Positions 3,422 through 27,691 of a stretch of DNA of 34,937 bases are shown here, piece after piece. Numbering within the stretch: the first letter of the stretch is position 1; each line of letters starts with the position of its first letter. The notes under the pieces are model-generated. The model saw only the letters and a program-made list of their open reading frames with translations, had not been told where the DNA came from and did no database searches. The stretch lies in contig PMES01000021.1 in NCBI GenBank assembly GCA_003154775.1, forward strand, positions 1-34,937. Reading direction: 5' to 3'. Source of the DNA: Acidobacteriota bacterium (GTDB lineage: Bacteria; Acidobacteriota; Terriglobia; Acidiferrales; UBA7541). The translations under genes and the position numbers were made by a program.

Positions 3422-6160
3422 CTAGACTTTCACCGCGACCGGCGCCTCTTCGGTCTCGGCCGCCGGCTTCTCCTCGGGGGCCAGCTTTTCCCAGTCGCAG
3501 CCTTCTTTAACGCAGGCGCGCACCAACCCGATCTTGCTTTTCTTCTCCACGATGAACGGGGCGCCGCACTTCGGGCAAGGCTCCGCAATCGGCATGTTCG
3601 GCGACGTGTAATCGCAGTCCGGATACCGCGAACAGCCGTAGAACACGCGCATCCGTCCGCGCCCGCCCTTGCCCACGCTTGCGCGCTTCACAAATTCGCC
3701 TTCCTTGCACTTCGGGCACTTGATTCCCAGGGTGATCGGCCGCGTGTACTTGCACTTCGGATATCCGAAGCACCCGATGAACTCGCCGAACCGCCCGTGC
3801 TTTTTCACCAGGCCAGCCCCGCAATCGGGGCACTTCTCGTCCAGGGGTTCGTCCGGTTGGTGCGCAATGCGCGTTCCCGCCACCAGCCGTCGCGTCGTCT
3901 TGCAATCCGGGTAGCCCGTGCACGCCAGAAACGCTCCAAACCGCCCGCGTTTCAGCGCCATTTCTTTGCCGCAGTTTTCGCAATATTCAATCTTGTTTTC
4001 CGCGTCTTCCGGAATCTCCTCGGAAAGGTCCTGGATGAAATCGCATTCCGGGTAACGCGAGCAGCCCAGAAAGAAGCCATGGCGGCTGATGCGTTCCAGG
4101 AGCTCTCCCTGGCCGCACTTTTCGCACTTTTTCCCGGTGGGGATGCCTGCCTTGTACGACACCATCTCGTCGCCGGCCCTGTCCAGATCGACGATGAACT
4201 TCTCCCAGAATTCCTTCACCGATTCCCGCCACGGCATCTTGCCTTCTTCAATGTCGTCCAACTCCTCTTCGAGCCGCGCCGTAAACTTCACGTCGAACAC
4301 GTCCTCGAAGCTCTTGATCAGCAGCATGCACACCCGCTCGCCGAGCATGGTTGGCGTAAATCGCCCCTGATCTTTCTTCACGTATTCGCGTTCCACAATC
4401 GTCGAGATGATGGACGCGTACGTGGATGGCCTGCCGATTCCGTCTTCTTCCAGTTCCTTGACCAGCGTCGCTTCCGTATAGCGCGGCGGCGGCTCCGTGA
4501 AATGCTGGTCCGGCCGGATCGACTCCAGCTTCAGCACTTGCCCCTCGCTCACGCGCGGCAGTGCCATGCCCGTGCCCTCGTCGTCCTTCTCATCCTCTTC
4601 GCGGTCCGTATTCGCCGCGGGAATCTGGTACACCTTAAGATAGCCGTCGAACTTCAGAATCGAGCCCGTCGCCCGGAAGGTATAGTCGCCCGCCTCGATA
4701 TCAATGGTCGTTTGGTCAAAAACTGCTGGCAGCATCTGCGACGCCACGAATCTCTGCCAGATGAGCTGGTACAGCTTGAACTGGTCGTCCGGCAGGTATT
4801 TCCGCACGTCTTCCGGGGTGCGCGATACTTCCGTCGGCCGAATTGCTTCGTGCGCGCCCTGCGCATCTTTTTTCGATTTGTAGAAATTCGGTTTTTCCGG
4901 CAGGTACGCGCTTCCAAACCGCTCCGGTATCAGCTCGCGCACCTGCTCCAGCGCGTCATTCGACACCTGCACGGAATCGGTGCGCATGTACGTGATCAGC
5001 GCCACCGACCCTTCTTCGCCCAGCTCCACGCCTTCATATAGCCGCTGCGCCAGCGCCATCGTGCGCTTCGCGGTGTAGCGCAGCCGGTTATACCCCGCCT
5101 GTTGCAGCTTCGACGTCGTGAACGGAGGCGGCGCGTAGCGCCTCTTTTCCTTCAGGGCGACGCTGGCCACCTGCCATTTTGCCTTGCTGACTGCGGCGAC
5201 AATCGCGTCAGCGGTCTCCTGATTTTTGACCTCGACGTCCTCGCCCTTCTTCTTCGTCAGCCGCGCCTCGAAAACCGGCGGCTCTCCCGCATCCAGCATC
5301 GCGTGGATCGACCAGTACTCCTGAGGAATAAACGCCCGAATCTCCTGCTCGCGCTCCACAATCAGCCGAAGCGCTACCGTCTGCACGCGTCCCGCGCTCA
5401 AGCCGCGCCGCACTTTGTCCCACAACAGGGGCGAAATCTTGTATCCCACGATGCGGTCCAGGACGCGTCGCGCTTGCTGTGCGTCCACCAGTTGCGTGTC
5501 CACCTGCCGGGGCTTTTCAAAAGCCGCGCGGATCGCCTTGGGCGTGATTTCGTTGAACGTCACCCGGAAGATCTTCTTGGGATCGATGGGCTCGATAACA
5601 ATGACGTCCTTTTCTTTCTTTTTGTCCCCGAACTTTCCTTTGCCCTTGCCCTTGGCGGGCGCCGCAGCGGCCTTTTCCGCTTCGGCTTTGTCGTCCTTTG
5701 CGCCGATGCCGCTCTTCTTCCCGTTTTCCTCGTCTGCCTCATCAATCAGGAACTTCGCCGGCTTGGAGAGCACCATCGCCAGGTGGGCAGAGATCGCCTC
5801 TCCTTCCCGGTCCGGATCGCCGGCCAGGTACACTGCATCTGCTTTCTGCGCCGCTCTCCGCAGGTCATTGACAACCTTCCCTTTGCCCGGGATCACCTGC
5901 AAGGTGGGCTCGAAGATCCTCGGATCATCCAGGGTTATGGGCTTCCGCAGTGGTTTGGGCGCTGCTGCCTTCGCGCCCTTCTTCCCCTTTTTCTTCTTTT
6001 TTGGCTTTTCGTCGTCGATCGGCAGGCGAATACCTATCGTCTTCGTCGGCAGGTCCATTACGTGCCCGATGGACGCCTTCACCGTAAAGTTCTTCCCCAA
6101 GTACTTGTTGATGGTCTTCGCCTTTGCCGGCGATTCGACGATTACCAGTGATCTTGCCAT
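3422..6160 (-). CDS. topA: DNA topoisomerase I (type IA)
   Basis: This 912-aa enzyme relaxes negative supercoils through a transient 5'-phosphotyrosine bond. The TOPRIM domain opens with SLVIVESPAKAKTINKYLG and carries the metal-binding DPDREGE at about residues 115-121. The catalytic Tyr391 lies in LITYMRTDS. The C-terminus has five four-cysteine zinc modules from about residue 665 on, with CEKCG, CENCG, CPDCG, CPKCK and CPKCG starts. Two low-complexity Lys/Ala-rich inserts are unusual: about 52-72 (KPKKKKKGKKG) and about 143-186. Both sit inside the TOPRIM region and look like flexible DNA-contacting loops. The gene follows dprA with a 287-base gap. Confidence 0.97.
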   Translation of the reverse strand: MARSLVIVESPAKAKTINKYLGKNFTVKASIGHVMDLPTKTIGIRLPIDDEKPKKKKKGKKGAKAAAPKPLRKPITLDDPRIFEPTLQVIPGKGKVVNDLRRAAQKADAVYLAGDPDREGEAISAHLAMVLSKPAKFLIDEADEENGKKSGIGAKDDKAEAEKAAAAPAKGKGKGKFGDKKKEKDVIVIEPIDPKKIFRVTFNEITPKAIRAAFEKPRQVDTQLVDAQQARRVLDRIVGYKISPLLWDKVRRGLSAGRVQTVALRLIVEREQEIRAFIPQEYWSIHAMLDAGEPPVFEARLTKKKGEDVEVKNQETADAIVAAVSKAKWQVASVALKEKRRYAPPPFTTSKLQQAGYNRLRYTAKRTMALAQRLYEGVELGEEGSVALITYMRTDSVQVSNDALEQVRELIPERFGSAYLPEKPNFYKSKKDAQGAHEAIRPTEVSRTPEDVRKYLPDDQFKLYQLIWQRFVASQMLPAVFDQTTIDIEAGDYTFRATGSILKFDGYLKVYQIPAANTDREEDEKDDEGTGMALPRVSEGQVLKLESIRPDQHFTEPPPRYTEATLVKELEEDGIGRPSTYASIISTIVEREYVKKDQGRFTPTMLGERVCMLLIKSFEDVFDVKFTARLEEELDDIEEGKMPWRESVKEFWEKFIVDLDRAGDEMVSYKAGIPTGKKCEKCGQGELLERISRHGFFLGCSRYPECDFIQDLSEEIPEDAENKIEYCENCGKEMALKRGRFGAFLACTGYPDCKTTRRLVAGTRIAHQPDEPLDEKCPDCGAGLVKKHGRFGEFIGCFGYPKCKYTRPITLGIKCPKCKEGEFVKRASVGKGGRGRMRVFYGCSRYPDCDYTSPNMPIAEPCPKCGAPFIVEKKSKIGLVRACVKEGCDWEKLAPEEKPAAETEEAPVAVKV

Positions 6161-18023: not shown

Positions 18024-18346
18024 GCACCGGCTTAATCGTCCAATACATCGGCTTCCAGGCTAAGCCTCTTTCACGGGAGTATACGTTTCATGTCCGTGGG
18101 CCCGCCGAAGAGCGCGATTTTACTTTGAACATTGCCAACGAGGCCTTCATCTCTCATCGCGCTCGTTATCAGGATGCTCCGTCTATTTGCTCGGAGAGGT
18201 TGCAAGCGGAGCTGGCCGCTCATGCGAACAGCCCAGCGGAAACGGAATTTGTGATTACGAGCGCGGAATTGGATTCCTATCGGGCGGCTCGTTCGCCGAA
18301 AACTCCTCAGAAACTCTGGGGACGCAAACCGCAGGAAGATTACTAG
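18020..18346 (+). CDS. Hypothetical protein (108 aa), possibly cut at its C-terminus
   Basis: The start overlaps the previous stop as ATGA. The product (MSTGLIVQYIGFQAKPLSRE, then YTFHVRGPAEERDFTLNIAN) looks like a small soluble beta-rich protein with a helical second half (ICSERLQAELAAHA). No family is recognised. Its TAG (18344-18346) lies exactly where the homologous part of the neighbouring integrase remnant breaks off, so the natural C-terminus may have been lost or replaced by the event that placed the integrase here. Confidence 0.65.
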   Translation: MSTGLIVQYIGFQAKPLSREYTFHVRGPAEERDFTLNIANEAFISHRARYQDAPSICSERLQAELAAHANSPAETEFVITSAELDSYRAARSPKTPQKLWGRKPQEDY

Positions 18347-19099
18347 CAGCATCTGGATGGTGCGCAGATCCGCGCCCGCTTCGAGCAGATGCGTGGCGAA
18401 GCGGTGCTGCAGTGTGTGTGGATGTACTTTTTTCTTGAGGCCCGCTCGCTTGGCGGCTTCCTTGCAAGCGTACCAGACCACCTTGGTGTCGATCGGCGTG
18501 TCGCCGGTATGCCAGCGGTTGCCTGGAAACAGCCAGGCGCTCGGCTTGCGCTTTAATCCGCGCCAGTGCTCACGCAACACCTCGAGCAGTTTAGGACTAA
18601 GCAGCACATCCCGGTCCTTGCGTCCCTTGCCGCTCTGGACGTGAATCACCATGCGCTGGCTGTCGATGTCGCTGACTTTCAGGTGCGTCAGTTCCGCGCG
18701 CCGCACGCCGGTGGCGTAGAGCGTCATCAGCAGAGTGCGATGGCAAGGCGTGCGTGCCGCGTCGATCAGTCGCGCGACTTCTTCCTGGCTGAGAATGGTT
18801 GGCAGGTGAAATGCCCTCTTCGGATAGGGCGTCTCCGCGATGCTCCAGGCCTTCTTGAGCGTCTTGCTGTAGAAGAACCGCAGAGCCGCCAAACGTTGCG
18901 TAACGGTGCCCGGCGACAACTTCCGCTTCTGAAACAGCTCGGCCTGATATTCACGAATGTGCCGGGGGCCCAAACGGTCCGGCGAACAGTGGAATCGTCG
19001 AGCAAATTCTTCGACTGTGCGGATGTAACAGCGTGTGGTAGTCTCGGCGTAATTACGACGCTGGAGTTCCTCCAGCATCATTTTTCTCAGATGGCTCAC
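18344..19099 (-). pseudogene. Truncated tyrosine-type integrase remnant (IS91-associated XerC-like type)
   Basis: A GTG start at 19099 with AAGGAGG five bases upstream opens a typical integrase: an N-terminal core-binding domain (SHLRKMMLEELQRRNYAETT) and then the catalytic domain with Arg133 in YATGVRRAEL. The second catalytic Arg is replaced by Gln (HPHTLQHR, about residue 231). Homology stops at LRTIQMLL, just before the expected GH motif and the Tyr nucleophile. Beyond 18,344 the frame only reads antisense through the neighbouring gene for about 90 meaningless codons. It therefore lacks three catalytic residues and should be dead. This kind of integrase is often found beside IS91-family transposases, but none is present. 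Confidence 0.85.
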
Positions 19100-19488
19100 A
19101 GGGACCTCCTTGTGACCCAAACTTATCTCAGCCGCAAGCCAACCACTGTTTCGCCCGACTCACGCGTAGCGTCCGCCGCCGGGCGGCTTCGTTCAGGTCG
19201 CGTACTGGGAAACTGATCCGCTACCAAAAGACCGGAGCACGCGCATCCGCTCCTAGCATGCACGGATTTGGGGGTATTCAGCGAAAAAGATAAGGGAGGC
19301 AGGCCAGGTCTTCCCGCCTCCCTCTTATTCCCCTTTCGGGGAATCCAACCAGCCTGACGGAGGGCGGCTAGTTGGTCGTGTGTTGGCCTGACAGTGTAAC
19401 CCCTCTGGCGCGAAAAAGGTTTCAACTATTTTCAAAAAACTGACTAGAATTGAGCTGTAGCTCCCTCGCTCACAGAAAGGGCCAAGTC
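19100..19488. other. Non-coding gap between the integrase remnant and rnr
   Basis: No gene is supported in these 389 bases. They hold the integrase ribosome binding site, a minus-strand terminator-like hairpin (listed separately), a CCCC/GGGG hairpin with loop TTTC at 19330-19341, and a TAGAAT box (19445-19450) that could be the -10 of rnr without a clear -35. Confidence 0.45.
19284..19328 (-). terminator. Orphan intrinsic terminator on the minus strand
   Basis: Read on the minus strand, ATAA plus GGGAGGC arms pair across a 15-base loop (arms at 19328-19316 and 19300-19290, with a 2-base bulge). TTTTT follows at 19288-19284. No minus-strand gene lies just upstream of it. Confidence 0.5.
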
Positions 19489-21990
19489 ATGCCTCGCCCC
19501 TCCCACCTCAGTACCGACAATATCCTTCGTTTTCTTCAACTTAGAAACGACCCCGTTTCCATCGAGGATCTCTCCCGCGCCCTCCACGTGAAAAAAGGCA
19601 ACCGCCGCCCCCTCCTCCAGATGCTCGCCAAACTCCAGACTCGCGGCCTCGTCGAGGAACTTTCCCACGGGCGCTTCCTTCTCCGCCGCTCGCAACGCGA
19701 TCCCGCCCCCGCTCCCGAACCCGCTCCCGAGAAAATCGTCCAACAGAAAGCCGCTTCCCGCGATGAAATCAAGGGGCGCCTCGTTCTCCATCAGGATGGC
19801 TACGGCTTTGTCGTTCCCGATGTCGCCCTTCCCAATGTGGTTGGCGACATTTTCATTCCGCGCGACTCCGTCGAAGACGCCATGCACGGCGATCACGTCG
19901 TCGCGAAGATCAACCGCCTCAGCGGCCACTCCGGCGCCCGCCGCGCCGAAGGACGCATTGTGCGCATCGTCGGCCGCGCGCATCCCTCCATCGTCGGCCA
20001 GTTCCGCTACACCTCGCGCGGCAGTGTCGTTGCGCCGTTTGACCCGCGCGTCCAGCATGACATCGAGCTTATAGCCGGCGAAGAACTTTCTCCCGCTCTC
20101 CGCGAACAGCTTCTTCCTACCGCCAAGGACTCCACGCGCCACAAGCGTCTCCCGCACATTCCCAAGCTCGATGGCGCCGTCGTCAACGTCGAACTCCTCC
20201 GCTATCCGCGCGCCGGCGCTTCGCCCACCGGACGCGTCATCGAAATCCTCGGCCGTCCCGGCGATCTCGGTGTGGATACCGAAATCATTATTCGCAAACA
20301 TCATCTTCCTCACACCTTTCCCGACGAAGTTCTGCATGAATCCGAGCGCCTCGCCTTGCCCGTTTCTGAAAACGACCGCGCTAGCAGGGAAGATTTCCGC
20401 GAACTCCCTATCGTCACCATTGACGGCGAAACCGCCCGCGACTTTGACGACGCCGTTTACGTCGAGCGCCGCGACGACGGCGGCTGGCTCCTTCAGGTGC
20501 ACATCGCCGACGTTGCCCACTACGTTCGTCCCGAGTCGCCCCTCGATCGCGAAGCCCGCCTACGCGGTAATTCCGTCTACTTCATCGATCGCGCCGTTCC
20601 CATGCTTCCTGAAGCTCTCTCCAACGGCATGTGCTCGCTCAATCCCCGCGAAGAGCGCCTCGTCCTCAGCGCCATCATGCACTTCGATGCCGCCGGACGC
20701 ATGCTCAACTCCTGGATGGTGCCCGGGGTCATCCGCTCCATCGAGCGCATGACCTACACCAACGTCAACAAAGTTCTCGAAGGCGACCCGGAAATGACCG
20801 CTCGCTACTCCCAACTCAACCATCATTTCCGCGCCATGAAAGGTCTGGCGCTGCTGCTCAACGCCCGCCGCGCCGAAAATGGCTCCATTGACTTCGATCT
20901 CCCCGAGCCGGTCATTTCCTTAGATGAACAACAGCAGATAACCGGCGTCTCCCGCAGTGAGCGCAACATCGCCCACCGCATCATCGAGGAGTTCATGCTC
21001 GCCGCCAATCGCGCCGTCGCTCACCAGCTCAACTCCCGTGCCATCAAGTCGCTCCAGCGCGTTCACGAAAAGCCCGATGGCCGCAAGGTCCTGGAGTTTG
21101 AAGATCTCGCCCGCGCCTTTGGTTATTCCCTCGGCGTCGAGGATCTCCACCAGCGTGAAGTCGCCGTGCGCCACGGCCGCGTTCCTGCTCCTGCAAAAGC
21201 CGGCCGTCCCGATTCTTACGGCAAAGGCCGCGAACGCCAGCAGCGCGTTGCTCTGCCCGCTGCCGACCTTCGCATCACGCCGCAGCATTACCAGCGCCTG
21301 GTGCAAAAGCTCGCCGGCAAGCCCGAAGAACGCATCCTCTCCTATCTCATGCTGCGTTCGCTGAAGCAGGCGCGCTACTCCGCCGATTCACTCGGCCACT
21401 TCGCGCTCGGCTTCGACGAATACACCCACTTCACTTCGCCCATTCGCCGTTATCCCGATCTCATCGTCCATCGCATCCTGAAATGGGCCATCGCTCATCC
21501 GGACGCCGCGCCGCCCTCGTTCATCAAGCCCGTCGTCGGCGCCGAAGCCTCGCTCTACTCCCAGCAACATCTCGAGGAAATTGCCGCGGAAACCTCGGAG
21601 ACCGAGCGCCGCGCCGCTTCCGCCGAGCGCGAACTCATCACCTGGAAAACCGCGCAATACATGGAGCAGCGTCTCGGGGACGAATTCGACGGCCTCATCA
21701 TCTCCGTTCAGAAATACGGCTGCTTCGTCGAGCTTCTCGATCTCTTCATCGAGGGCCTGCTCCCCATCGGCGCCCTCGAAGAAGCCTCCGGCGCTCGCTG
21801 CGTGTTTCGCGAAAGCGATCGCGCCATCGTCGCCATGGGGGAATCCGGAGGCGCGCGCCGCAGCCGCTCCAGCCGCCGCAAGTCCGCCGCTCCGCTCATC
21901 TGGAAACTCGGCGATCGCATCCGCGTGCGCGCCGAACGCATCGACCCCATGCGCCGTCGCGTCGAATTCGCCCTCGTCGCCGGGGCATAG
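19489..21990 (+). CDS. rnr: Ribonuclease R
   Basis: This 833-aa 3'-to-5' exoribonuclease degrades structured RNA. Domain order: an N-terminal winged-helix (STDNILRFLQLRNDPVSIED), cold-shock domains (GRLVLHQDGYGFVVPD at about 96-111, IFIPRDS), and the RNB catalytic domain with the acidic cluster ARDFDDAV at about 316-323. A C-terminal S1 domain (DGLIISVQKYGCFVELLDLF) and a basic tail (GGARRSRSSRRKS) follow. I chose the ATG at 19489, preceded by AAAGGG, over an in-frame ATG at 19450. RNase II is the alternative, but length and the basic tail favour RNase R. Confidence 0.94.
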   Translation: MPRPSHLSTDNILRFLQLRNDPVSIEDLSRALHVKKGNRRPLLQMLAKLQTRGLVEELSHGRFLLRRSQRDPAPAPEPAPEKIVQQKAASRDEIKGRLVLHQDGYGFVVPDVALPNVVGDIFIPRDSVEDAMHGDHVVAKINRLSGHSGARRAEGRIVRIVGRAHPSIVGQFRYTSRGSVVAPFDPRVQHDIELIAGEELSPALREQLLPTAKDSTRHKRLPHIPKLDGAVVNVELLRYPRAGASPTGRVIEILGRPGDLGVDTEIIIRKHHLPHTFPDEVLHESERLALPVSENDRASREDFRELPIVTIDGETARDFDDAVYVERRDDGGWLLQVHIADVAHYVRPESPLDREARLRGNSVYFIDRAVPMLPEALSNGMCSLNPREERLVLSAIMHFDAAGRMLNSWMVPGVIRSIERMTYTNVNKVLEGDPEMTARYSQLNHHFRAMKGLALLLNARRAENGSIDFDLPEPVISLDEQQQITGVSRSERNIAHRIIEEFMLAANRAVAHQLNSRAIKSLQRVHEKPDGRKVLEFEDLARAFGYSLGVEDLHQREVAVRHGRVPAPAKAGRPDSYGKGRERQQRVALPAADLRITPQHYQRLVQKLAGKPEERILSYLMLRSLKQARYSADSLGHFALGFDEYTHFTSPIRRYPDLIVHRILKWAIAHPDAAPPSFIKPVVGAEASLYSQQHLEEIAAETSETERRAASAERELITWKTAQYMEQRLGDEFDGLIISVQKYGCFVELLDLFIEGLLPIGALEEASGARCVFRESDRAIVAMGESGGARRSRSSRRKSAAPLIWKLGDRIRVRAERIDPMRRRVEFALVAGA

Positions 21991-22002
21991 CGCCTCTGTA
22001 GC

Positions 22003-22020
22003 GGCCACCTTCAGGTGGCC
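22003..22020. repeat. REP-like hairpin after rnr
   Basis: GGCCACCTTCAGGTGGCC has an 8-bp stem and a TC loop, 12 bases after the rnr stop. There is no T-run, so it looks like a dispersed palindrome rather than a terminator, though it may protect the 3' end of the transcript. Confidence 0.5.
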
Positions 22021-22127
22021 ATCTTCCTCCTCGCGATGGCGCAGGATTGCTCCCGAAACGGAAATGTCGGCGCGCCGACATATTGTAGATACGTTACCAT
22101 GCGGATAACAGCTCCCGTCCCCCTTTC

Positions 22128-22178
22128 TCCCCAGCACCGTAGGTGCGCCAGACGTTAGCCCAGCCCGTCAGGGCTGGG
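22128..22178. repeat. REP-like element with two hairpins
   Basis: A small hairpin around CACCGTAGGTG is followed by CCCAGCCCGTCAGGGCTGGG (22159-22178; 8-bp stem, 4-base loop). The pattern of a short hairpin, a GTTAGCC-type linker and a longer hairpin resembles dispersed palindromic elements common in this kind of genome. Confidence 0.5.
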
Positions 22179-22207
22179 AAAGCCCCCCCCCTGTTTTTGC
22201 GTAAGTA

Positions 22208-22286
22208 GGGGAAACAAAGGGGTTACGGGCGCATTTCGTGGATGTGGGGGAAACAAAGGGCTTAGGGGATTTTTCGGTCTGGCCGA
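22208..22286. repeat. Degenerate 39-bp tandem repeat (two units)
   Basis: GGGGAAACAAAGGGGTTA at 22208-22225 recurs as GGGGAAACAAAGGGCTTA at 22247-22264, with one mismatch in 18 and a period of 39. The second half of the unit (TTTCG region) is similar but diverged. Confidence 0.6.
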
Positions 22287-22383
22287 GGGTGTGGGGCACG
22301 TTGTTTGTGTCCCGGACGAGGTTCCGGGACGGCTCGAAATGGCACAAGAGCAGCGTCCCCTCAGCATAACGGGTGAAGCATAA

Positions 22384-22445
22384 CACATTATTTACCGTTT
22401 GTCTACTATTATTTAGTGGGTACTAGTTTCGAAACTGGTACGAGG
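22384..22445 (+). repeat. Left inverted repeat of the restriction-modification block
   Basis: This 62-base segment matches the reverse complement of 26254-26314. The outer core CACATTATTTACC is identical (13 of 13), the middle 21-22 bases are diverged, and the inner core of 27 bases (22419-22445) is 25 of 27 identical. The inner core holds a perfect 12-base palindrome, AGTTTCGAAACT. The outer core lies toward the outside of the block at both ends. Confidence 0.85.
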
Positions 22446-22744
22446 AGGGGATCGTGGAAAGGAGAGAAGAACCGACCCACGCCTTCAAAACCCGAAAGCG
22501 TAGGTCATCCGAACTTGCCTCAGCGCGTTAAGCGTGCGCCATCCGCCGTCAGTTTTTAGACTCAGGAAACCATCAGACCCACCCCCAAGTTGCGAGGTCC
22601 GGGGCTCCCGGTGACGCGACACCATCACTTTCAGTTGTCGCGGTCGGGCGCAGTGAGTATAGTGACTGGTGGAAACTTAGATCCCCCAATGAGCGGAAAG
22701 AGTCCCGCAGGAGCTGGGTCGAAGAATAGCCCAGAAGAGTTGCG
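22446..22744. other. Leader region before the PLD nuclease gene
   Basis: These 299 bases between the left inverted repeat and the nuclease start hold no supportable gene. The region probably carries the nuclease promoter, but I cannot place a convincing -35/-10 pair. Confidence 0.35.
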
Positions 22745-23944
22745 ATGCCTGTCCATATTCTCAACCAGCCAGACGACCAGCAATTGGCCTCTCTACTTAG
22801 GCAACGATTAGGGATTCCAGAACTCCTGAAATTTGACGCGCTCGTGGCTTTTGCAGTCAGCTCAGGCGTAGAACAGCTCCAAGCAGAGTTGGAATCTCTA
22901 CTTGGTCGAGGTGGGAGAGTCCGAATTGTTGTTGGCGTGAGCAATAAAGTCACCACAGCTGAAGGTCTACAGCTTCTACTTGAATTGGTGCACAAAGGCG
23001 GGAATGTCTTTGTCTTCCACAATGACAATTATGCCAATCCCATCTTTCACCCTAAGCTATACCTTTTTCAAGAAAAAGAGAGGGGTGTTCTGATCGTTGG
23101 CTCCAACAACATGACGGGCAAAGGATTGGTCACGAACTACGAGATTTCGTTAGTGCATGAGCTTGACCTTAAGAACAAACCGGAAGCGGAGTTGGCTGCT
23201 TCTGCAGAGAAAATCGTAGATAGGTACTGCGATGTGACCAGCGGCTTTTCGCAATCTTTGGACGCCAAATTCCTGCGAGAGCTGGAGGCGGAGGGATACT
23301 TAGGTTCAGAGAAGGCCGGAACAAACAGACCCGAGACATCTGGTGAAGGCGAGTCTGCCCCAGCCCCACCCAAGAAGAAACTCTTCCCTTCCAAGGCGGT
23401 GCCCCAACCGACTGGACGCAGAGCTGCCGCTGCTAAGGGAATCGTTCATCCCACTAAGCCGACCGCGGCAGCTATTCCTTCGGCTATCCCGGCCCACGCT
23501 GCTGCCGTCAACCGGGGACCTCTCCTGTGGGAGAAGGAACTCAGCTTGACCGATGCGCAGTTACAACCAGGACATGTCACAGGAGAAGTCCGATTGACTC
23601 AAGCGAGATGGCGGGTCGGGGGTAAATTAATCAACCAGGTCACTTACTTTCGAAAAGTTTTGTTTGGGGGATTTAACTGGATACCAACCAAGAAGCATCC
23701 CTATTATCGTGAAGAAGCAGGCGTGCGATTCGATATAACGATTTTGGGGAACAATTTGGGTGTTCATCGACTGCAAGTAAGCGATAAGCCGAGCGGAGAG
23801 GCTAGTCAGGGAAACTACACTTCGGCCCTTCACTGGGGCAACCTCCGCAGCACGATTCAGAAAGCTAAGGTTGATGGCAAAACGCTGAGACTTTACGGCC
23901 CGCCGAAAGGAAGCAACGAGCCGTTTTTTATCGAGATATCGTGA
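22745..23944 (+). CDS. PLD-family restriction endonuclease-like protein (BfiI/NgoFVII type)
   Basis: This 399-aa protein has an N-terminal phospholipase D-type nuclease domain (about 1-170). It has a single active-site motif: HPKLYLF gives His102-x-Lys104, followed by VGSNNMTGKG at about 118-127. Enzymes with one such motif, such as BfiI and Nuc, act as dimers and cut DNA without a metal ion. An Ala/Pro/Lys-rich linker (about 195-258) leads to a C-terminal beta-rich domain (about 260-399), in the position of the B3-like DNA-recognition domain of BfiI. AAGAG precedes the ATG. It is convergent with, and overlaps by 52 bases, the DNA methyltransferase, which supports a restriction role. A repair or defence nuclease is the alternative. 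Confidence 0.8.
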   Translation: MPVHILNQPDDQQLASLLRQRLGIPELLKFDALVAFAVSSGVEQLQAELESLLGRGGRVRIVVGVSNKVTTAEGLQLLLELVHKGGNVFVFHNDNYANPIFHPKLYLFQEKERGVLIVGSNNMTGKGLVTNYEISLVHELDLKNKPEAELAASAEKIVDRYCDVTSGFSQSLDAKFLRELEAEGYLGSEKAGTNRPETSGEGESAPAPPKKKLFPSKAVPQPTGRRAAAAKGIVHPTKPTAAAIPSAIPAHAAAVNRGPLLWEKELSLTDAQLQPGHVTGEVRLTQARWRVGGKLINQVTYFRKVLFGGFNWIPTKKHPYYREEAGVRFDITILGNNLGVHRLQVSDKPSGEASQGNYTSALHWGNLRSTIQKAKVDGKTLRLYGPPKGSNEPFFIEIS

Positions 23945-25617
23945 TCTGTAATCGCAAGTGAGTCAGGTGAATCCTGCTCTTCTGAATTCTCAGTGATTCG
24001 CTGCCTGCGTTTTTTTAACCGAAGCCAGGCCGCCAATAGTTGGTTCTGTTCAGCATGGCTCAGACCAACTTTTCCAAGCACGTCCGGACCCTGTTGTTCG
24101 AGAACATCGTGGGCGCTTGCCTCCCTGACCAGTTTGTCGAGCCTCTGCACTTGCGGGCGCAATCCCCTTGGAAGTGGTACAAGTAGTTTCTCGATCTCCG
24201 ATGGCACAAGTTCGATCACGCCACCCCCGTAATGCCGTCCTTCAAGCTCTGCGCTCAAAGCCGTGAGGGAGTTGAGGAAGCAATAGACTAACTTTTCCGG
24301 GGCCACGTCTTTTGTTTTGATTCGGTAAGCAGTATCTGTAGTGTAAGCCGAGAGTTTGTTCAGGATTAGCCTTGGAGTGTCGCTCGCTCGTTTAAGCATG
24401 GCGACGCCCGTCGAATACACTGAGGGAACCGTATACCAAGGTTTGCGTACCCTACATTTATAACGAGTGTGAAGTTTCTCCTTCTCGCCGAGTTCGATGT
24501 ATTCGAGCACCTTCTTCGAGAGCTCGGATTTCGGAGGCGTTATCCATACAAAATTTGTCGGCTTGCCGATGCGGGAATTCTCGGCGTGCTGCCGTTCGTC
24601 ATAAATAACGCCGGGGCAGTGGTCACTGCGACCGAACATTGGGTGCACGAAGCTTGCCAACCCGTACTGCGAAACTGTTTCGTCGTGCACAAGAAAGAAC
24701 TTGTTTGCTCCCGTTACGATACCGACATCAACTTTGGCTATGTCTTCGAACCGATACACATGCTCGCTTTCAGCTAACGAATCGACCAGGCTTCTCTCGG
24801 CAGAGGTTAGCAGTGCTCGCGTCCATTTACCCTCCACCGTTTTGCCGTTAATGCGCGTGGTATCGTTGAACAACCGCGATGGGTCTTCGCAGAGAAAAGA
24901 CCGACCGCTCACTTTTACGATTCCAACTCCTTCGCAGTGGTCTGTGGGATGGTGTTTCTTCTCAGCGAAAAGAATGACCGCCCCCTGTAAAGTCCCGTCG
25001 AACCAGAGTTCTTCCGGATCGATGACGAGAAGTCTGCTGCACACATCGCCGAGGTAGGTACGCAGTGATTGTGGGTGCATGACGTGGATAATTTCAGCTG
25101 GGAGAATCATCCCAAGCCGACCGCCGGGCTGCAACATCGCTACAGAAGCAAGAACGAAAGGGACCCAAGCGTTCGTGTGTTTGGTGAACGGCAGCCGGAG
25201 AAGCTTGAAGATCGCCTCAGCTTTGTTCTGTGATTCCGACGGCAGATATTGATATCGAACGAAGGGGGGATTTCCGACCACACAGTCAAAATCCTTCCGC
25301 CCCTCTAGGATTTGCTTTATCGCAAAATCGAGGAAGTCTCCGCTATGAATCTTGGACGCGAAGCGCGGCACTGAAAGGCAGCGTTCTTTCGCTTTGACGG
25401 CTTCCTCGTCGAATAGTTCGAATCCTGTGAAGTGCAATCTAGCTCGCGGTTCCGCCTTTGCCAATGCTTCAAGGAAAATTCCGTCACCGCAACTTGGCTC
25501 AAGCACAGAGTGTGGATGCTTTTCGGAAGCCCAACGAGAAATATAGATTGCTAGGTCTAGAGGGGTGTAATAGCCCCCGCGAAGCTTTTGTGCAGTTTCG
25601 TTTTTAATGAAATTCAT
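23893..25617 (-). CDS. N6-adenine DNA methyltransferase (Eco57I/TaqI-like)
   Basis: This 574-aa class I SAM-dependent methyltransferase has motif X GGYYTP at about 14-19, the SAM-binding motif I LEPSCGDGIFLE at about 39-50 and the catalytic motif IV NPPFVRY at about 116-122. That order is typical of gamma-type adenine methyltransferases. The C-terminal half (about 290-500) contains IVTGANKFFLV and GRHYGGGVIELVPSEIEKL, as in the target-recognition part of TaqI/Eco57I-like enzymes. No nuclease motif is seen, so it is not a fused type IIG enzyme. Its 3' end overlaps the PLD gene tail to tail. It would protect the host site recognised by that nuclease. Confidence 0.92.
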   Translation of the reverse strand: MNFIKNETAQKLRGGYYTPLDLAIYISRWASEKHPHSVLEPSCGDGIFLEALAKAEPRARLHFTGFELFDEEAVKAKERCLSVPRFASKIHSGDFLDFAIKQILEGRKDFDCVVGNPPFVRYQYLPSESQNKAEAIFKLLRLPFTKHTNAWVPFVLASVAMLQPGGRLGMILPAEIIHVMHPQSLRTYLGDVCSRLLVIDPEELWFDGTLQGAVILFAEKKHHPTDHCEGVGIVKVSGRSFLCEDPSRLFNDTTRINGKTVEGKWTRALLTSAERSLVDSLAESEHVYRFEDIAKVDVGIVTGANKFFLVHDETVSQYGLASFVHPMFGRSDHCPGVIYDERQHAENSRIGKPTNFVWITPPKSELSKKVLEYIELGEKEKLHTRYKCRVRKPWYTVPSVYSTGVAMLKRASDTPRLILNKLSAYTTDTAYRIKTKDVAPEKLVYCFLNSLTALSAELEGRHYGGGVIELVPSEIEKLLVPLPRGLRPQVQRLDKLVREASAHDVLEQQGPDVLGKVGLSHAEQNQLLAAWLRLKKRRQRITENSEEQDSPDSLAITDHDISIKNGSLLPFGGP

Positions 25618-25688
25618 CTTCCAAACCCGCCATAGTAACCCACCGGAACTACCTTACAATCCACAATGCTAATATACAATTTAATCGT

Positions 25689-25694
25689 TATAAT
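25689..25694 (+). promoter_or_regulatory. Candidate -10 box upstream of the small DNA-binding gene
   Basis: A perfect TATAAT lies 57 bases before the ATG at 25751, in an AT-rich intergenic region shared with the methyltransferase start. No good -35 is found at 16-18 bases. Confidence 0.4.
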
Positions 25695-25750
25695 AGCTTT
25701 CATAAAAGAGTCGAGTTTAACCTTTTTGTTGTGCGCTGGAGTTCCCAACG

Positions 25751-26008
25751 ATGCCCAGGCCGAAGCGACTCCGTCCCGATGCCGAACAGGTCGGCTTCTA
25801 CCTAACGCCAGAGGAGCAATTGGTGCTCCAAATTATCCGCGTACGGAGAAAGAAGCGCGGAGATGAAAGAATCGGTCAAAGCGAAATCGTGTCGGACGCT
25901 TTGATGACCCTACTTGAAAAGGTGGAAGGTGTAGCCAGGGAGAGGATCGACGACTTAGTGGTTGACCAACGCACCGGTGCCAAATTGAAACAGTTCCCCA
26001 AGAAATGA
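25751..26008 (+). CDS. Small ribbon-helix-helix-like protein (possible controller)
   Basis: The 85-aa product starts at an ATG with GGAG nine bases upstream. After a basic start (MPRPKRLRPDAEQ) it reads VGFYLTPEEQLVLQIIRVRR and then IGQSEIVSDALMTLLEKVEG. That is a short strand followed by two helices, as in CopG/Arc-type ribbon-helix-helix proteins. It is divergent from the methyltransferase across 133 AT-rich bases. This placement suggests a transcriptional controller of the restriction-modification genes, comparable in role to C proteins, but of another fold. The fold call is by pattern only. Confidence 0.65.
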   Translation: MPRPKRLRPDAEQVGFYLTPEEQLVLQIIRVRRKKRGDERIGQSEIVSDALMTLLEKVEGVARERIDDLVVDQRTGAKLKQFPKK

Positions 26009-26164
26009 AAACATCAAAGTGCAAATAAGCGGCGTAATAAAATTCTGGCCAGCCGTATTTCGCGGTCCGGTGAACTCAGTGGCCGACCCGATTGACGAAG
26101 CGAGCTTACAGCCGAGAACTCCGTCTCATTAGCACATGGCCTATGGCCGCCTTTTTAGCCCTAA

Positions 26165-26237
26165 TGCTCCCCAAAATGGAGCAGGATGCTGCACTCTTTC
26201 CGCTTTTGGAAAAAGGGTGCGGGTTTTGACTTTTTTT
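26165..26237 (+). terminator. Hairpins and T-run after the small DNA-binding gene
   Basis: TGCTCC/GGAGCA (26165-26183) is followed by an imperfect hairpin at 26191-26220 (GCAC...CTTTCC with GGAAA...GGTGC) and by seven T at 26231-26237. The T-run starts 10 bases after the stem, so efficiency is uncertain. Confidence 0.45.
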
Positions 26238-26253
26238 CTACCGCCGCCGGTCC

Positions 26254-26314
26254 CCTCGTACCAGTTTCGACTCTAGTACCTCACAATGTCTATTGACAGT
26301 TGGTAAATAATGTG
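26254..26314 (-). repeat. Right inverted repeat of the restriction-modification block
   Basis: This is the inverted partner of 22384-22445. The outer core GGTAAATAATGTG (26302-26314) is the exact complement of the left outer core. The inner core (26254-26280) differs at two of 27 positions, which breaks the 12-base palindrome found in the left copy. No clear target-site duplication is seen just outside the two repeats. Confidence 0.85.
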
Positions 26315-26941
26315 GTAAGATGCGTTGTGAATACTCGGCACAAGCCCGCCCGCGCTCCGCAGCTCCCCAGCACATGCACTCCCTGCGCCAACAGTGCGCA
26401 TCGATATCAAAACAAAGGCTTTGTAAATCAAAATAGTGAATTTCTAAGTCCCTTGTTTTCACACTCTTGCGCACACTTGCGCCCGCAAACCCTTTGTTTT
26501 GACATGCTTCACAAAAACAGGCGGGGGGAGGGGGTTACTCCGGTGGCAATAGTTCGTTCCCGAATCGGGATGGGTAGGGGTTCGAGACACAAGAGGGCAG
26601 AGGGATCCCTCTCCCGCCTTTGCGGGATCGGGATGACGGAAGGGGGCAAGAGAGACCCAAGAGCGGCCCGCCTCCCCGACCGGGTCGGGGTAAACGCCAG
26701 GCGGCCCCTACAGAAGAAAGAGAGAGGAGCGGTGCCGGGCGCGGAGCCAAGCTCAAATAATTGTGCGGACATGGGGCGCAGGAGTCCTGCGCCCCTACAA
26801 GGGCAAGAGAAACCCAAGAACCGGTCCCGCAAGCGGGACCGGCCACTACATAGGAAAGAGAGAGGCGGGACGGCAAGCGCTCCGATCCTCAAGAGGGCAG
26901 AGTCGTCCCGGCGGCGGTTGATTATGTTTCGCGGTTCGCGG
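26315..26941. other. Non-coding spacer between the restriction-modification block and the SOD gene
   Basis: No gene is supported in these 627 bases; long open frames here come from repeat-rich GC-rich sequence. A 12-base inverted repeat, TCAAAACAAAGG (26407-26418) and CCTTTGTTTTGA (26491-26502), lies in the left half. The right half is a cluster of REP-like hairpins. Confidence 0.6.
26599..26865. repeat. Cluster of REP-like hairpins with a repeated frame
   Basis: Five palindromes occur within 267 bases: AGAGGGATCCCTCT (26599-26612), CCCGC/GCGGG (26613-26626), CCCCGAC/GTCGGGG (26674-26690), an 11-bp stem starting GGGGCGCAGGA (26773-26795) and CCGGTCCCGC/GCGGGACCGG (26821-26842). Two of the hairpins sit in the same frame: GGGCAAGAGARACCCAAGA before (26644-26662 and 26801-26819) and CTACA...GAAAGAGAGAGG after (26708-26727 and 26846-26865). 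Confidence 0.75.
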
Positions 26942-27691
26942 CTACTTGCGGGCTGCGCTGTACAGTTCCGCCGCTTTGTCCCAGTTCACCACATTCCACC
27001 AGGCATCAATGTAATCGCCGCGCAGATTCTGATACTTGATGTAATAGGCGTGTTCCCAGACGTCCAGGCCCAGCACGGCCTTGCCTCCTGTAAAGTACTG
27101 CGTGTCCTGGTTCGGCGTGGAATCGATGGCCAGCTTGCCATCTTTCACCAGCAGCCAGGCCCATCCGGAGCCGAATCGCCCCAGGCCCGCGGCCTTGAAC
27201 TTATCCTTAAATCCAGCGAAAGAACCGAAGCCCCCGGTGATGGCTGCCGCCAGATCGCCCTTGGGCTCGCCGCCTCCGCCCTTCTTCATCAATTGCCAGA
27301 AGAGCGAATGGTTCCAGTGGCCGCCGCCATTGTTGCGGACGGCATTGCGAATATTCTCCGGCACGCTATCCAGGCCCTTGAGCAGGTCATCGATGGACTT
27401 GGACTGCAAGTCGGCATGACCTTCCAGCGCCTTGTTCAGATTGCTGACATAGGCGCCGTGATGCTTGTCGTGATGGATTTGCATCGTCTTGGCGTCAATG
27501 TAGGGTTCGAGTGCGTCAAACGAGTACGGCAAAGGGGGCAGTGTGAATGCCACGGGTTTGTCCTCCACATTCAGATTGAGATTGAAATCCGACCTGGTTT
27601 CCGCTTGCAACAGACCTGGTGCTGCCTTGCCCGCCCCAAGCAGGCCAGCACCGACAATGCCACTGCTAACGAGAAACTTGCGGCGATCCAT
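26942..27691 (-). CDS. sodA: Exported superoxide dismutase, Fe/Mn family (Mn-type signature)
   Basis: The 249-aa enzyme converts superoxide to oxygen and hydrogen peroxide. The N-terminus [20 protein letters not shown] has the twin-Arg RRKFL plus hydrophobic core of a Tat signal, so it probably acts outside the cytoplasm. The mature part has all four metal ligands: His73 (QIHHDKHH), His128 (HWNHSLFW), Asp210 and His214 (LDVWEHAYY). NNGGGHWNH together with STPNQD (Gln at about 195) is the pattern of Mn rather than Fe enzymes; cambialistic use is possible. GAGGAG lies six bases before the ATG and a good promoter lies upstream. Confidence 0.94.

What the first reader, a model, noticed from the sequence alone, without database searches (positions are those of the whole stretch)
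22384..26314. Restriction-modification block bounded by long imperfect inverted repeats
Seen directly: 22384-22445 matches the reverse complement of 26254-26314, with a 13-of-13 outer core and a 25-of-27 inner core separated by 21-22 diverged bases. Between them lie a PLD nuclease, an adenine methyltransferase and a small DNA-binding protein, in sequence of visibly lower GC than both flanks. Inference: the 3.9-kb block is, or was, a mobile unit with terminal inverted repeats but no transposase of its own. It might be moved in trans, or by the nuclease itself. This would be a transposon-like carrier of a minimal defence system.
Basis: partly seen in the sequence, partly recalled or inferred. 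Interest (0 to 1): 0.78.

Follow-up and report, generated by a model that had tools for sequence, protein, structure and literature searches.

The report
Repeat brackets around swappable defence genes
The two inverted repeats around this restriction-modification block belong to a family of about 40 copies in this soil bacterium's genome; the copies mark the edges of gene slots whose contents, often anti-virus genes, differ between two sister species while the neighbouring genes stay the same.

Summary
The inverted repeats are real but are not unique transposon ends. They belong to an intergenic repeat family: 41 matches in this genome, 32 in sister G035 (inferred to be Candidatus Acidiferrum typicum), diverged forms in other genus members. 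A copy holds a palindrome, an outward extended -10 promoter and a conserved leader, in A and B subfamilies; the window has one of each. Copies mark edges. On the promoter side 40-60% is covered by the sister's fetched loci; on the palindrome side 10-16% for about 3.5 kb. Of 13 close pairs 11 are outward-facing, 2 tandem, 0 inward; 50 of 74 copies are unpaired. Interiors are defence-rich: R-M types I, II, III, IIG, Lamassu-like, TrlF, reverse transcriptases. One slot keeps both brackets with different cargo, and two cargos lie at different loci in the sisters. rnr and SOD were found as neighbours only here, so a rearrangement probably joined them. I favour homologous recombination between bracket copies, a minimal-mobile-element-like exchange that also works between loci; transposition in trans, a RAYT route or site-specific recombination at the palindrome is not excluded. 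Nine paper searches listed no such system.

The parts
22183..22448 (-). bracket element, A subfamily: palindrome, outward promoter and leader ending near CAAAAACAGGGGG (reads toward rnr)
   Evidence: and leader alignment; best-scoring R1 match 22326-22447 (-)
22419..22445 (.). left palindrome GTACYAGTTTCGAAACTRGTAC with its outer edge
   Evidence: exact palindrome in GTDB contigs only in Ca. Acidiferrum typicum (which may leave out records near the window's own genome)
22377..22405 (-). outward sigma-70-like promoter TAGACA-17-TATGCT with TG before -10
22473..22507 (-). cargo-side hairpin, of the type that flanks RAYT genes; terminator-like
   Evidence: stem of 16 pairs; the scan as a whole found no excess of terminators, 6 against 6.1 expected; likeness to RAYT hairpins by eye; the strict motif scan did not count this copy
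22745..23944 (+). PLD-domain nuclease-like protein, weakly similar to a solved restriction endonuclease
   Evidence: 2c1l_A E 0.0034
23893..25617 (-). Eco57I-type N6-adenine DNA methyltransferase
   Evidence: PDLC03267 6.6e-195
25751..26008 (+). 85-aa ORF of unknown family
   Evidence: no match; best PDB E 1.5
26188..26223 (+). right cargo-side hairpin CTGCACTCTTTCC...GGAAAAAGGGTGCGG followed by a T-rich tract
   Evidence: read by eye and compared; not picked up by the terminator scan
26252..26530 (+). bracket element, B subfamily: palindrome, outward promoter and leader (reads toward the 3' end of the SOD gene)
   Evidence: 139.0 bits with the B model
26293..26321 (+). outward sigma-70-like promoter TTGACA-17-TAAGAT with TG before -10

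Best explanation
The two repeats are two members (types A and B) of a lineage-specific dispersed intergenic element that brackets interchangeable accessory-gene slots. Shown: the family, its outward orientation, the synteny break at the palindrome, the defence-rich interior, cargo replacement between brackets that stay with the core genes at one slot, and two cargos at different loci in the sister species. Inferred: cargo (and sometimes a whole flank) is swapped by homologous recombination between bracket copies at different loci or on incoming DNA, while hairpins and outward promoters insulate the neighbouring genes from whatever cargo is present. It works like a minimal mobile element whose flanking homology is a shared repeat instead of a locus-specific gene.
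For: Family: 41 matches in G000 at E<=0.1 and 32 in G035 at E<=0.01. Synteny around 49 elements: coverage 0.39-0.62 per 500 bp on the promoter side, 0.10-0.16 on the palindrome side to 3.5 kb, then rising to 0.33; of 32 elements with coverage over 0.15 on a side, 27 more conserved on the promoter side, 4 the other way, 1 tie. Close pairs under 8 kb: 11 outward, 2 tandem, 0 inward. PADLOC families at E<=1e-10: 315 for 106 cargo-side ORFs, 26 for 106 promoter-side ORFs. Slot L032/L082: both brackets kept, kinase cargo in one species, methyltransferase cargo in the other. Type I R-M cargo (HsdR 97% aa identity) at locus C20 in G000 and at a different locus, C25, in G035; a two-gene cargo (87 and 94% aa identity) at C120 in G000 and beside rnr in G035. 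The C138 slot of G000 and the SOD slot of G035 share the right flank and, by eye, the R-M genes, but have different left flanks.
Against: Breakpoints, judged by eye on alignments, vary: at the palindrome in four locus pairs, about 60-190 bp inside in others, over 200 bp inside at one end; triplet alignments gave no sharp switch point, so recombination itself is not demonstrated. Repeats at different loci are often only about 70-90% identical, poor substrates for RecA. 50 of 74 elements have no partner within 8 kb in the stretches fetched. 22 of 51 scanned loci gave no defence call, and the promoter side has some strong PADLOC hits too (DpdF 1.7e-161, PsyrT 2.4e-92). The terminator scan of the window found no excess (6 against 6.1 expected), so insulation is conjecture. 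Only two species, both draft assemblies.
Confidence: 0.5

Rival explanations
1. Non-autonomous transposon: A and B are left and right ends, the cargo unit is moved by a transposase acting in trans.
For: Outward geometry in 11 of 13 close pairs; by best-scoring model 8 of these 11 have A at one end and B at the other, 2 are A/A, 1 B/B; cargo found at different loci in the sisters; lower GC than the immediate flanks.
Against: No target-site duplication: of 8 units tried 4 were testable at both ends, longest shared flank 4-6 nt, within the null; the outer end was set by a motif of my choice. No empty site found: rnr and SOD close only in G000. Brackets stay while cargo changes at one slot. 50 of 74 copies unpaired.
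Confidence: 0.15
2. RAYT/TIRYT (IS200/IS605-type Y1 transposase) repeats: the bracket is a composite REP/TIR-like element spread by these enzymes, and cargo rides along or accumulates between copies.
For: A hairpin motif of the kind that flanks RAYT genes lies within 200 bp on the cargo side in 21 of 49 elements, in 18 of them at 40-90 bp; of 23 RAYT matches in G000 and G035, 6 lie on the cargo side of a bracket within about 3.2 kb (C20, C33; C25, C121, C167, C179); acidobacterial TIRYTs with dispersed TIR families are described in PMC3733652 (passages and section 16 read).
Against: The other 17 of 23 RAYT matches have no bracket element within the roughly 2 kb fetched on each side, less at contig ends; the hairpin next to a bracket reads in the opposite sense to that of the RAYT units (by eye). 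No palindrome-promoter element was found flanking both sides of a RAYT gene alone.
Confidence: 0.17
3. Site-specific recombination at the symmetric palindrome by a tyrosine recombinase, integron-like docking of cassettes.
For: Homology between orthologous loci breaks at the palindrome in four locus pairs, by eye; in G035 a cargo lies between two direct brackets beside rnr (L079); 35 and 34 tyrosine recombinase matches in G000 and G035 against 5-11 in four relatives.
Against: Breakpoints at other loci lie 60 to over 200 bp inside; no dedicated recombinase identified; the Xer/IntI-like gene at 18074-19120 scores below every NCBIfam cut-off, and in G035 homology on that side of rnr ends before it (seen only to the end of the stretch fetched).
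Confidence: 0.12
4. Regulatory element only: a sigma-70 promoter with an operator, duplicated in intergenic regions; cargo turnover beside it is coincidence.
For: Promoter and half-site conserved across species; in other genus members the nearest promoter-side ORF of at least 200 aa is co-directional in 16 of 19 (raw ORFs, some of them likely spurious leader ORFs).
Against: In G000/G035 the nearest conserved gene is co-directional in only 15 of 25; the one-sided synteny break and defence contrast are unexplained.
Confidence: 0.06

Closest known systems
Minimal mobile elements (Neisseria; definition seen in passages of PMC3082526)
   Same: Different whole-gene cassettes between conserved flanks in different strains, incorporated by homologous recombination.
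   Different: Here the same repeat borders some tens of loci, so cargo can appear at different loci; outward promoters and often hairpins are part of the border.
Correia repeat enclosed elements (PMC2649163, start of abstract in the listing)
   Same: Dispersed repeats with inverted-repeat structure that can generate promoters at their ends.
   Different: Here copies sit as separated outward pairs or singles at the edges of multi-kb cargo; sequences not compared.
RAYT/TIRYT REPtrons and TIRtrons (PMC3733652, passages and section 16 read)
   Same: Dispersed palindromic repeats, also in Acidobacteria; a shared type of hairpin next to many brackets.
   Different: GTAG tag not systematically tested; 17 of 23 RAYT matches have no bracket near.
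Tn7-like transposons with defence cargo (PMC8649781, start of abstract in the listing)
   Same: Defence cargo carried between the boundaries of an element.
   Different: No transposase in the window block; brackets persist while cargo changes at one slot; Tn7 genes not searched for.
Integrons with cassette arrays (general features recalled; PMC12444791 seen in the listing)
   Same: Interchangeable cassettes next to palindromic sites and a promoter.
   Different: No associated integron integrase or attC shown; sites are dispersed at many loci; promoters point away from the cargo.

Membership tests
Minimal mobile element | Different gene cassettes between conserved flanking genes in different strains or species | tested here: met
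   Slot L032/L082 keeps both flanks and brackets, cargo differs
Minimal mobile element | Incorporation by homologous recombination in the flanks | tested here: inconclusive
   Breakpoints variable and in or near the repeats; no direct proof
DNA transposon with terminal inverted repeats | Inverted repeats at both ends | tested here: met
   for the window; 11 outward pairs, though 50 of 74 copies are unpaired
DNA transposon with terminal inverted repeats | Target-site duplication | tested here: not met
   8 units tried, 4 with both outer flanks available; shared flank 4-6 nt, within the null; ends set by a motif of my choice
DNA transposon with terminal inverted repeats | Empty site in relatives | tested here: not met
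   rnr and SOD close only in G000 among 33 genomes with both; 31 have them on different contigs
Integron | Integron integrase next to the cassettes | tested here: inconclusive
   Only the window's Xer/IntI-like protein was tested: 157.9 bits against cut-off 265 for TIGR02249; the other 34 tyrosine recombinase matches of G000 were not classed
RAYT/REP system | Repeats flank the cognate RAYT gene | tested here: inconclusive
   The hairpin type flanks RAYT genes; the palindrome-promoter element is absent near 17 of 23 RAYT matches
Type II restriction-modification (cargo) | DNA methyltransferase plus nuclease | tested here: met
   PLDc_2 and M_Eco57I domains; activity not testable

The most novel reading that the evidence does not exclude
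Acidiferrum keeps a genome-wide set of some 40 dedicated docking sites for defence genes: palindromic recombination sites with outward promoters and insulating hairpins, between which immune cassettes are exchanged by an unidentified recombinase, a distributed integron-like arsenal.
Probability: 0.13. Interest if true: 0.87.

Novelty: new variant of a known kind. Interest (0 to 1): 0.6.

Why it matters
How bacteria swap defence systems without obvious mobility genes is an open question. A repeat family that marks the edge of swappable slots at many loci gives a search handle: the repeat can be used to find new defence genes in Acidobacteriota, and strain comparisons at these slots can measure how fast and by what route immune genes turn over.

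Tried and rejected
Structured non-coding RNA: among 9 sources scanned at the gathering threshold (window and 8 loci) no Rfam family matched an element; Acido-Lenti-1 lies next to two of them, and the relaxed scan of 21950-26950 added one sub-threshold hit, GmglnB1 5' UTR at 26179-26254, 22.9 bits against 54. RNAalifold on 10 B leaders gave 27 pairs, 4 with double changes, covariation term +0.57; on 21 palindrome-promoter regions 6 pairs, none with double changes. The 29 A leaders were aligned but not folded. A structured leader RNA is thus not supported, not excluded for A.

Viral origin: exact palindrome in 0 viral contigs. Common regulon of housekeeping genes: gene direction mixed in G000/G035. 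Reciprocal exchange of flanks between slots: only partly resolved because G035 matches lie at contig ends. Exact crossover mapping by triplets: no sharp switch. Movement by the PLD nuclease: rejected, other brackets carry other proteins. Assembly chimera: not testable without reads; thought unlikely because copies differ and brackets recur at orthologous places in G035.
Full report
OBSERVATION. The block has lower GC than its immediate flanks and encodes a PLD-domain protein, an Eco57I-type adenine methyltransferase and an 85-aa ORF without a significant match.

WHAT THE REPEATS ARE. A search of the own genome with the 68-base arm gave 49 rows at E<=10, of which 24 cover at least 58 bases, both window copies included. 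A sequence-only model of 21 copies finds 41 matches in the own genome G000 at E<=0.1, the weakest of them partial. Over 61 genomes at E<=0.01 it finds 39 in G000, 32 in sister G035 and 1-3 weak ones in 8 other genus members; none of the 25 genomes outside the genus matched. The exact palindrome was found in GTDB contigs only in Candidatus Acidiferrum typicum UBA7541 (7 stretches; records very near the window's own genome may be left out) and in no viral contig. A half-site pattern occurs in 10 of 36 genus genomes; the reversed control pattern gives 0 or 1 per strand and genome, and two of the ten (G017, G018) have a single hit that by eye does not look like the element. In G003, G007, G009, G010 and others many sites have tandem half-sites followed by the same kind of extended -10 promoter.

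ANATOMY. From cargo to core: often a hairpin of the type that flanks RAYT transposase genes, the palindrome, then TTGACA or TAGACA, 17 bases, an extended -10, and a conserved leader ending near CAAAAACA and a G-run. An independent scan finds both window promoters, pointing away from the block, and only these two have TG before the -10 (6 promoter-like sites in the region against 2.3 expected; terminators 6 against 6.1 expected, no excess). Two subfamilies differ downstream of the -10: A (left arm here) and B (right arm here).

THE ELEMENTS MARK AN EDGE. Long alignments between G000 and G035 are mostly 90-94% identical. Over 49 elements in the first 41 regions (window included), coverage by the sister's fetched loci is 0.39-0.62 per 500 bp on the promoter side, 0.10-0.16 on the palindrome side out to 3.5 kb, then rises to 0.33 at 4.5-5 kb. 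Among 32 elements with coverage over 0.15 on at least one side, 27 are more conserved on the promoter side, 4 the other way (in L028, L033, L043, L078), 1 equal. The sister's loci were chosen because they hold elements, so both sides had about the same chance to match, apart from stretches cut by contig ends. In the enlarged set (41 elements in 35 G000 stretches, 33 in 26 G035 stretches) 13 neighbouring pairs lie within 8 kb: 11 outward, 2 tandem, 0 inward; probability about 1e-5 if orientation were random and pairs independent, though two of the outward pairs are one orthologous slot. 24 elements have such a partner, 50 do not.

THE CARGO. ORFs of at least 200 aa within 4.5 kb were taken by one rule on both sides: 106 and 106. 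At E<=1e-10 the cargo side matches 315 PADLOC families and the promoter side 26; these families overlap, so the ratio overstates the number of proteins, and the promoter side includes strong hits (DpdF 1.7e-161, PsyrT 2.4e-92). Scanning one or a few cargo proteins per locus, 29 of 51 loci gave a defence match: 25 by PADLOC at E<=1e-10 and 4 by NCBIfam (L030, L091, L095; L087 counted through its 97% identity with L030). Of the 29, four are generic (ABC-F ATPase L038, kinases L046 and L088, UvrD helicase L092), L095 is far below its family's cut-off, and L030 and L087 carry the same cargo. Ten of the 61 stretches were not scanned this way. Named examples: type I HsdR (NF046051, above cut-off), type III methyltransferase 1.5e-112, type IIG 9.3e-97, Lamassu-like LmuB 1.2e-100, PDC-S06 7.3e-130, TrlF (NF045780, above cut-off), RT UG19 2.3e-127, a type II restriction enzyme 2.8e-72.

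CARGO MOVES, BRACKETS STAY. In slot L032 (G000) and L082 (G035) an A copy and a decayed B copy face the same core genes, yet the cargo is a kinase pair in one and a methyltransferase group in the other; at the A end homology continues over 200 bp past the palindrome. A type I R-M cargo sits at C20 in G000 and at a different locus, C25, in G035, whose G000 counterpart C17 holds a type III system. A two-gene cargo is at C120 in G000 but beside rnr in G035; the larger protein is probably DUF3443, a family that two of the 106 cargo ORFs match (one search does not say which). At one locus of other species whose promoter side is homologous in G007, G009 and G010 (by eye an adenylosuccinate lyase gene), G007 has a type II methyltransferase 3.8e-131, G010 another large ORF and G009 no such gene by eye.

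THE WINDOW SLOT. SOD and rnr were both found in 33 of 36 genus genomes; they are close only in G000, lie about 635 kb apart on one contig in G010 and on different contigs in 31, where adjacency across contig ends cannot be fully excluded. In G035 each still has a bracket next to it: A next to rnr, B next to SOD, and homology to the window runs from SOD through the B copy up to the palindrome. The flank beyond the SOD slot of G035 is at C138 in G000, where a B copy joins, by eye, the same R-M genes to another left flank. The window is therefore probably a rearrangement joint that holds a cassette, not an insertion between old neighbours.

MECHANISM. Shown: dispersed brackets, one-sided turnover, orientation, relocation of two cargos. 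Inferred: homologous recombination between bracket copies. For: breakpoints lie in or near the repeats but at varying positions, flanks as well as cargo change partners, no target-site duplication at the 4 testable units of 8, no common mobility gene noticed in the cargo (not systematically searched). Against: the repeats are diverged, and no crossover point could be fixed. Hairpins like those at RAYT genes next to 21 of 49 brackets and 6 of 23 RAYT matches on the cargo side of brackets keep a Y1-transposase route open. The higher number of tyrosine recombinase matches in G000 and G035 (35 and 34, against 5-11 in four relatives) is a lead for site-specific recombination.

KNOWN KIND. The nearest concept is the minimal mobile element (definition seen in passages of PMC3082526). 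Correia elements (PMC2649163, listing) share promoters in inverted repeats; TIRYT repeats in Acidobacteria (PMC3733652, section 16 read) share the hairpin theme. Nine searches, judged from titles and starts of abstracts, listed no description of this arrangement in the library held; most subscription papers are not in it.

Noticed in passing
window 22133-22178 (-): Acido-Lenti-1 RNA (RF01687, 55.6 bits) lies just outside the left bracket; another copy lies on the cargo side of the element in L011.
   Followed up: partly
window 18074-19120 (-): Xer/integron-integrase-like tyrosine recombinase beside rnr, below all NCBIfam cut-offs; the homology of the G035 rnr locus ends before it in the stretch fetched.
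   Followed up: partly
L081 about 3807-3920: By eye, a palindrome copy appears split by a roughly 95-bp insert with inverted ends and a repeated ACTAGT, like a MITE.
   Followed up: no
L197 5748-6458 (-): ORF that looks by eye like a TIR-domain protein, between two weak outward brackets 2.5 kb apart; PADLOC gave no match at E<=1e-10.
   Followed up: partly
genomes G000 and G035: 35 and 34 tyrosine recombinase matches, against 5-11 in four relatives, and 9 and 14 RAYT-type matches against 0-3.
   Followed up: no
L198 7141-9261 (+): 706-aa reverse transcriptase of the UG19 group (2.3e-127) on the cargo side of a bracket in G035.
   Followed up: no
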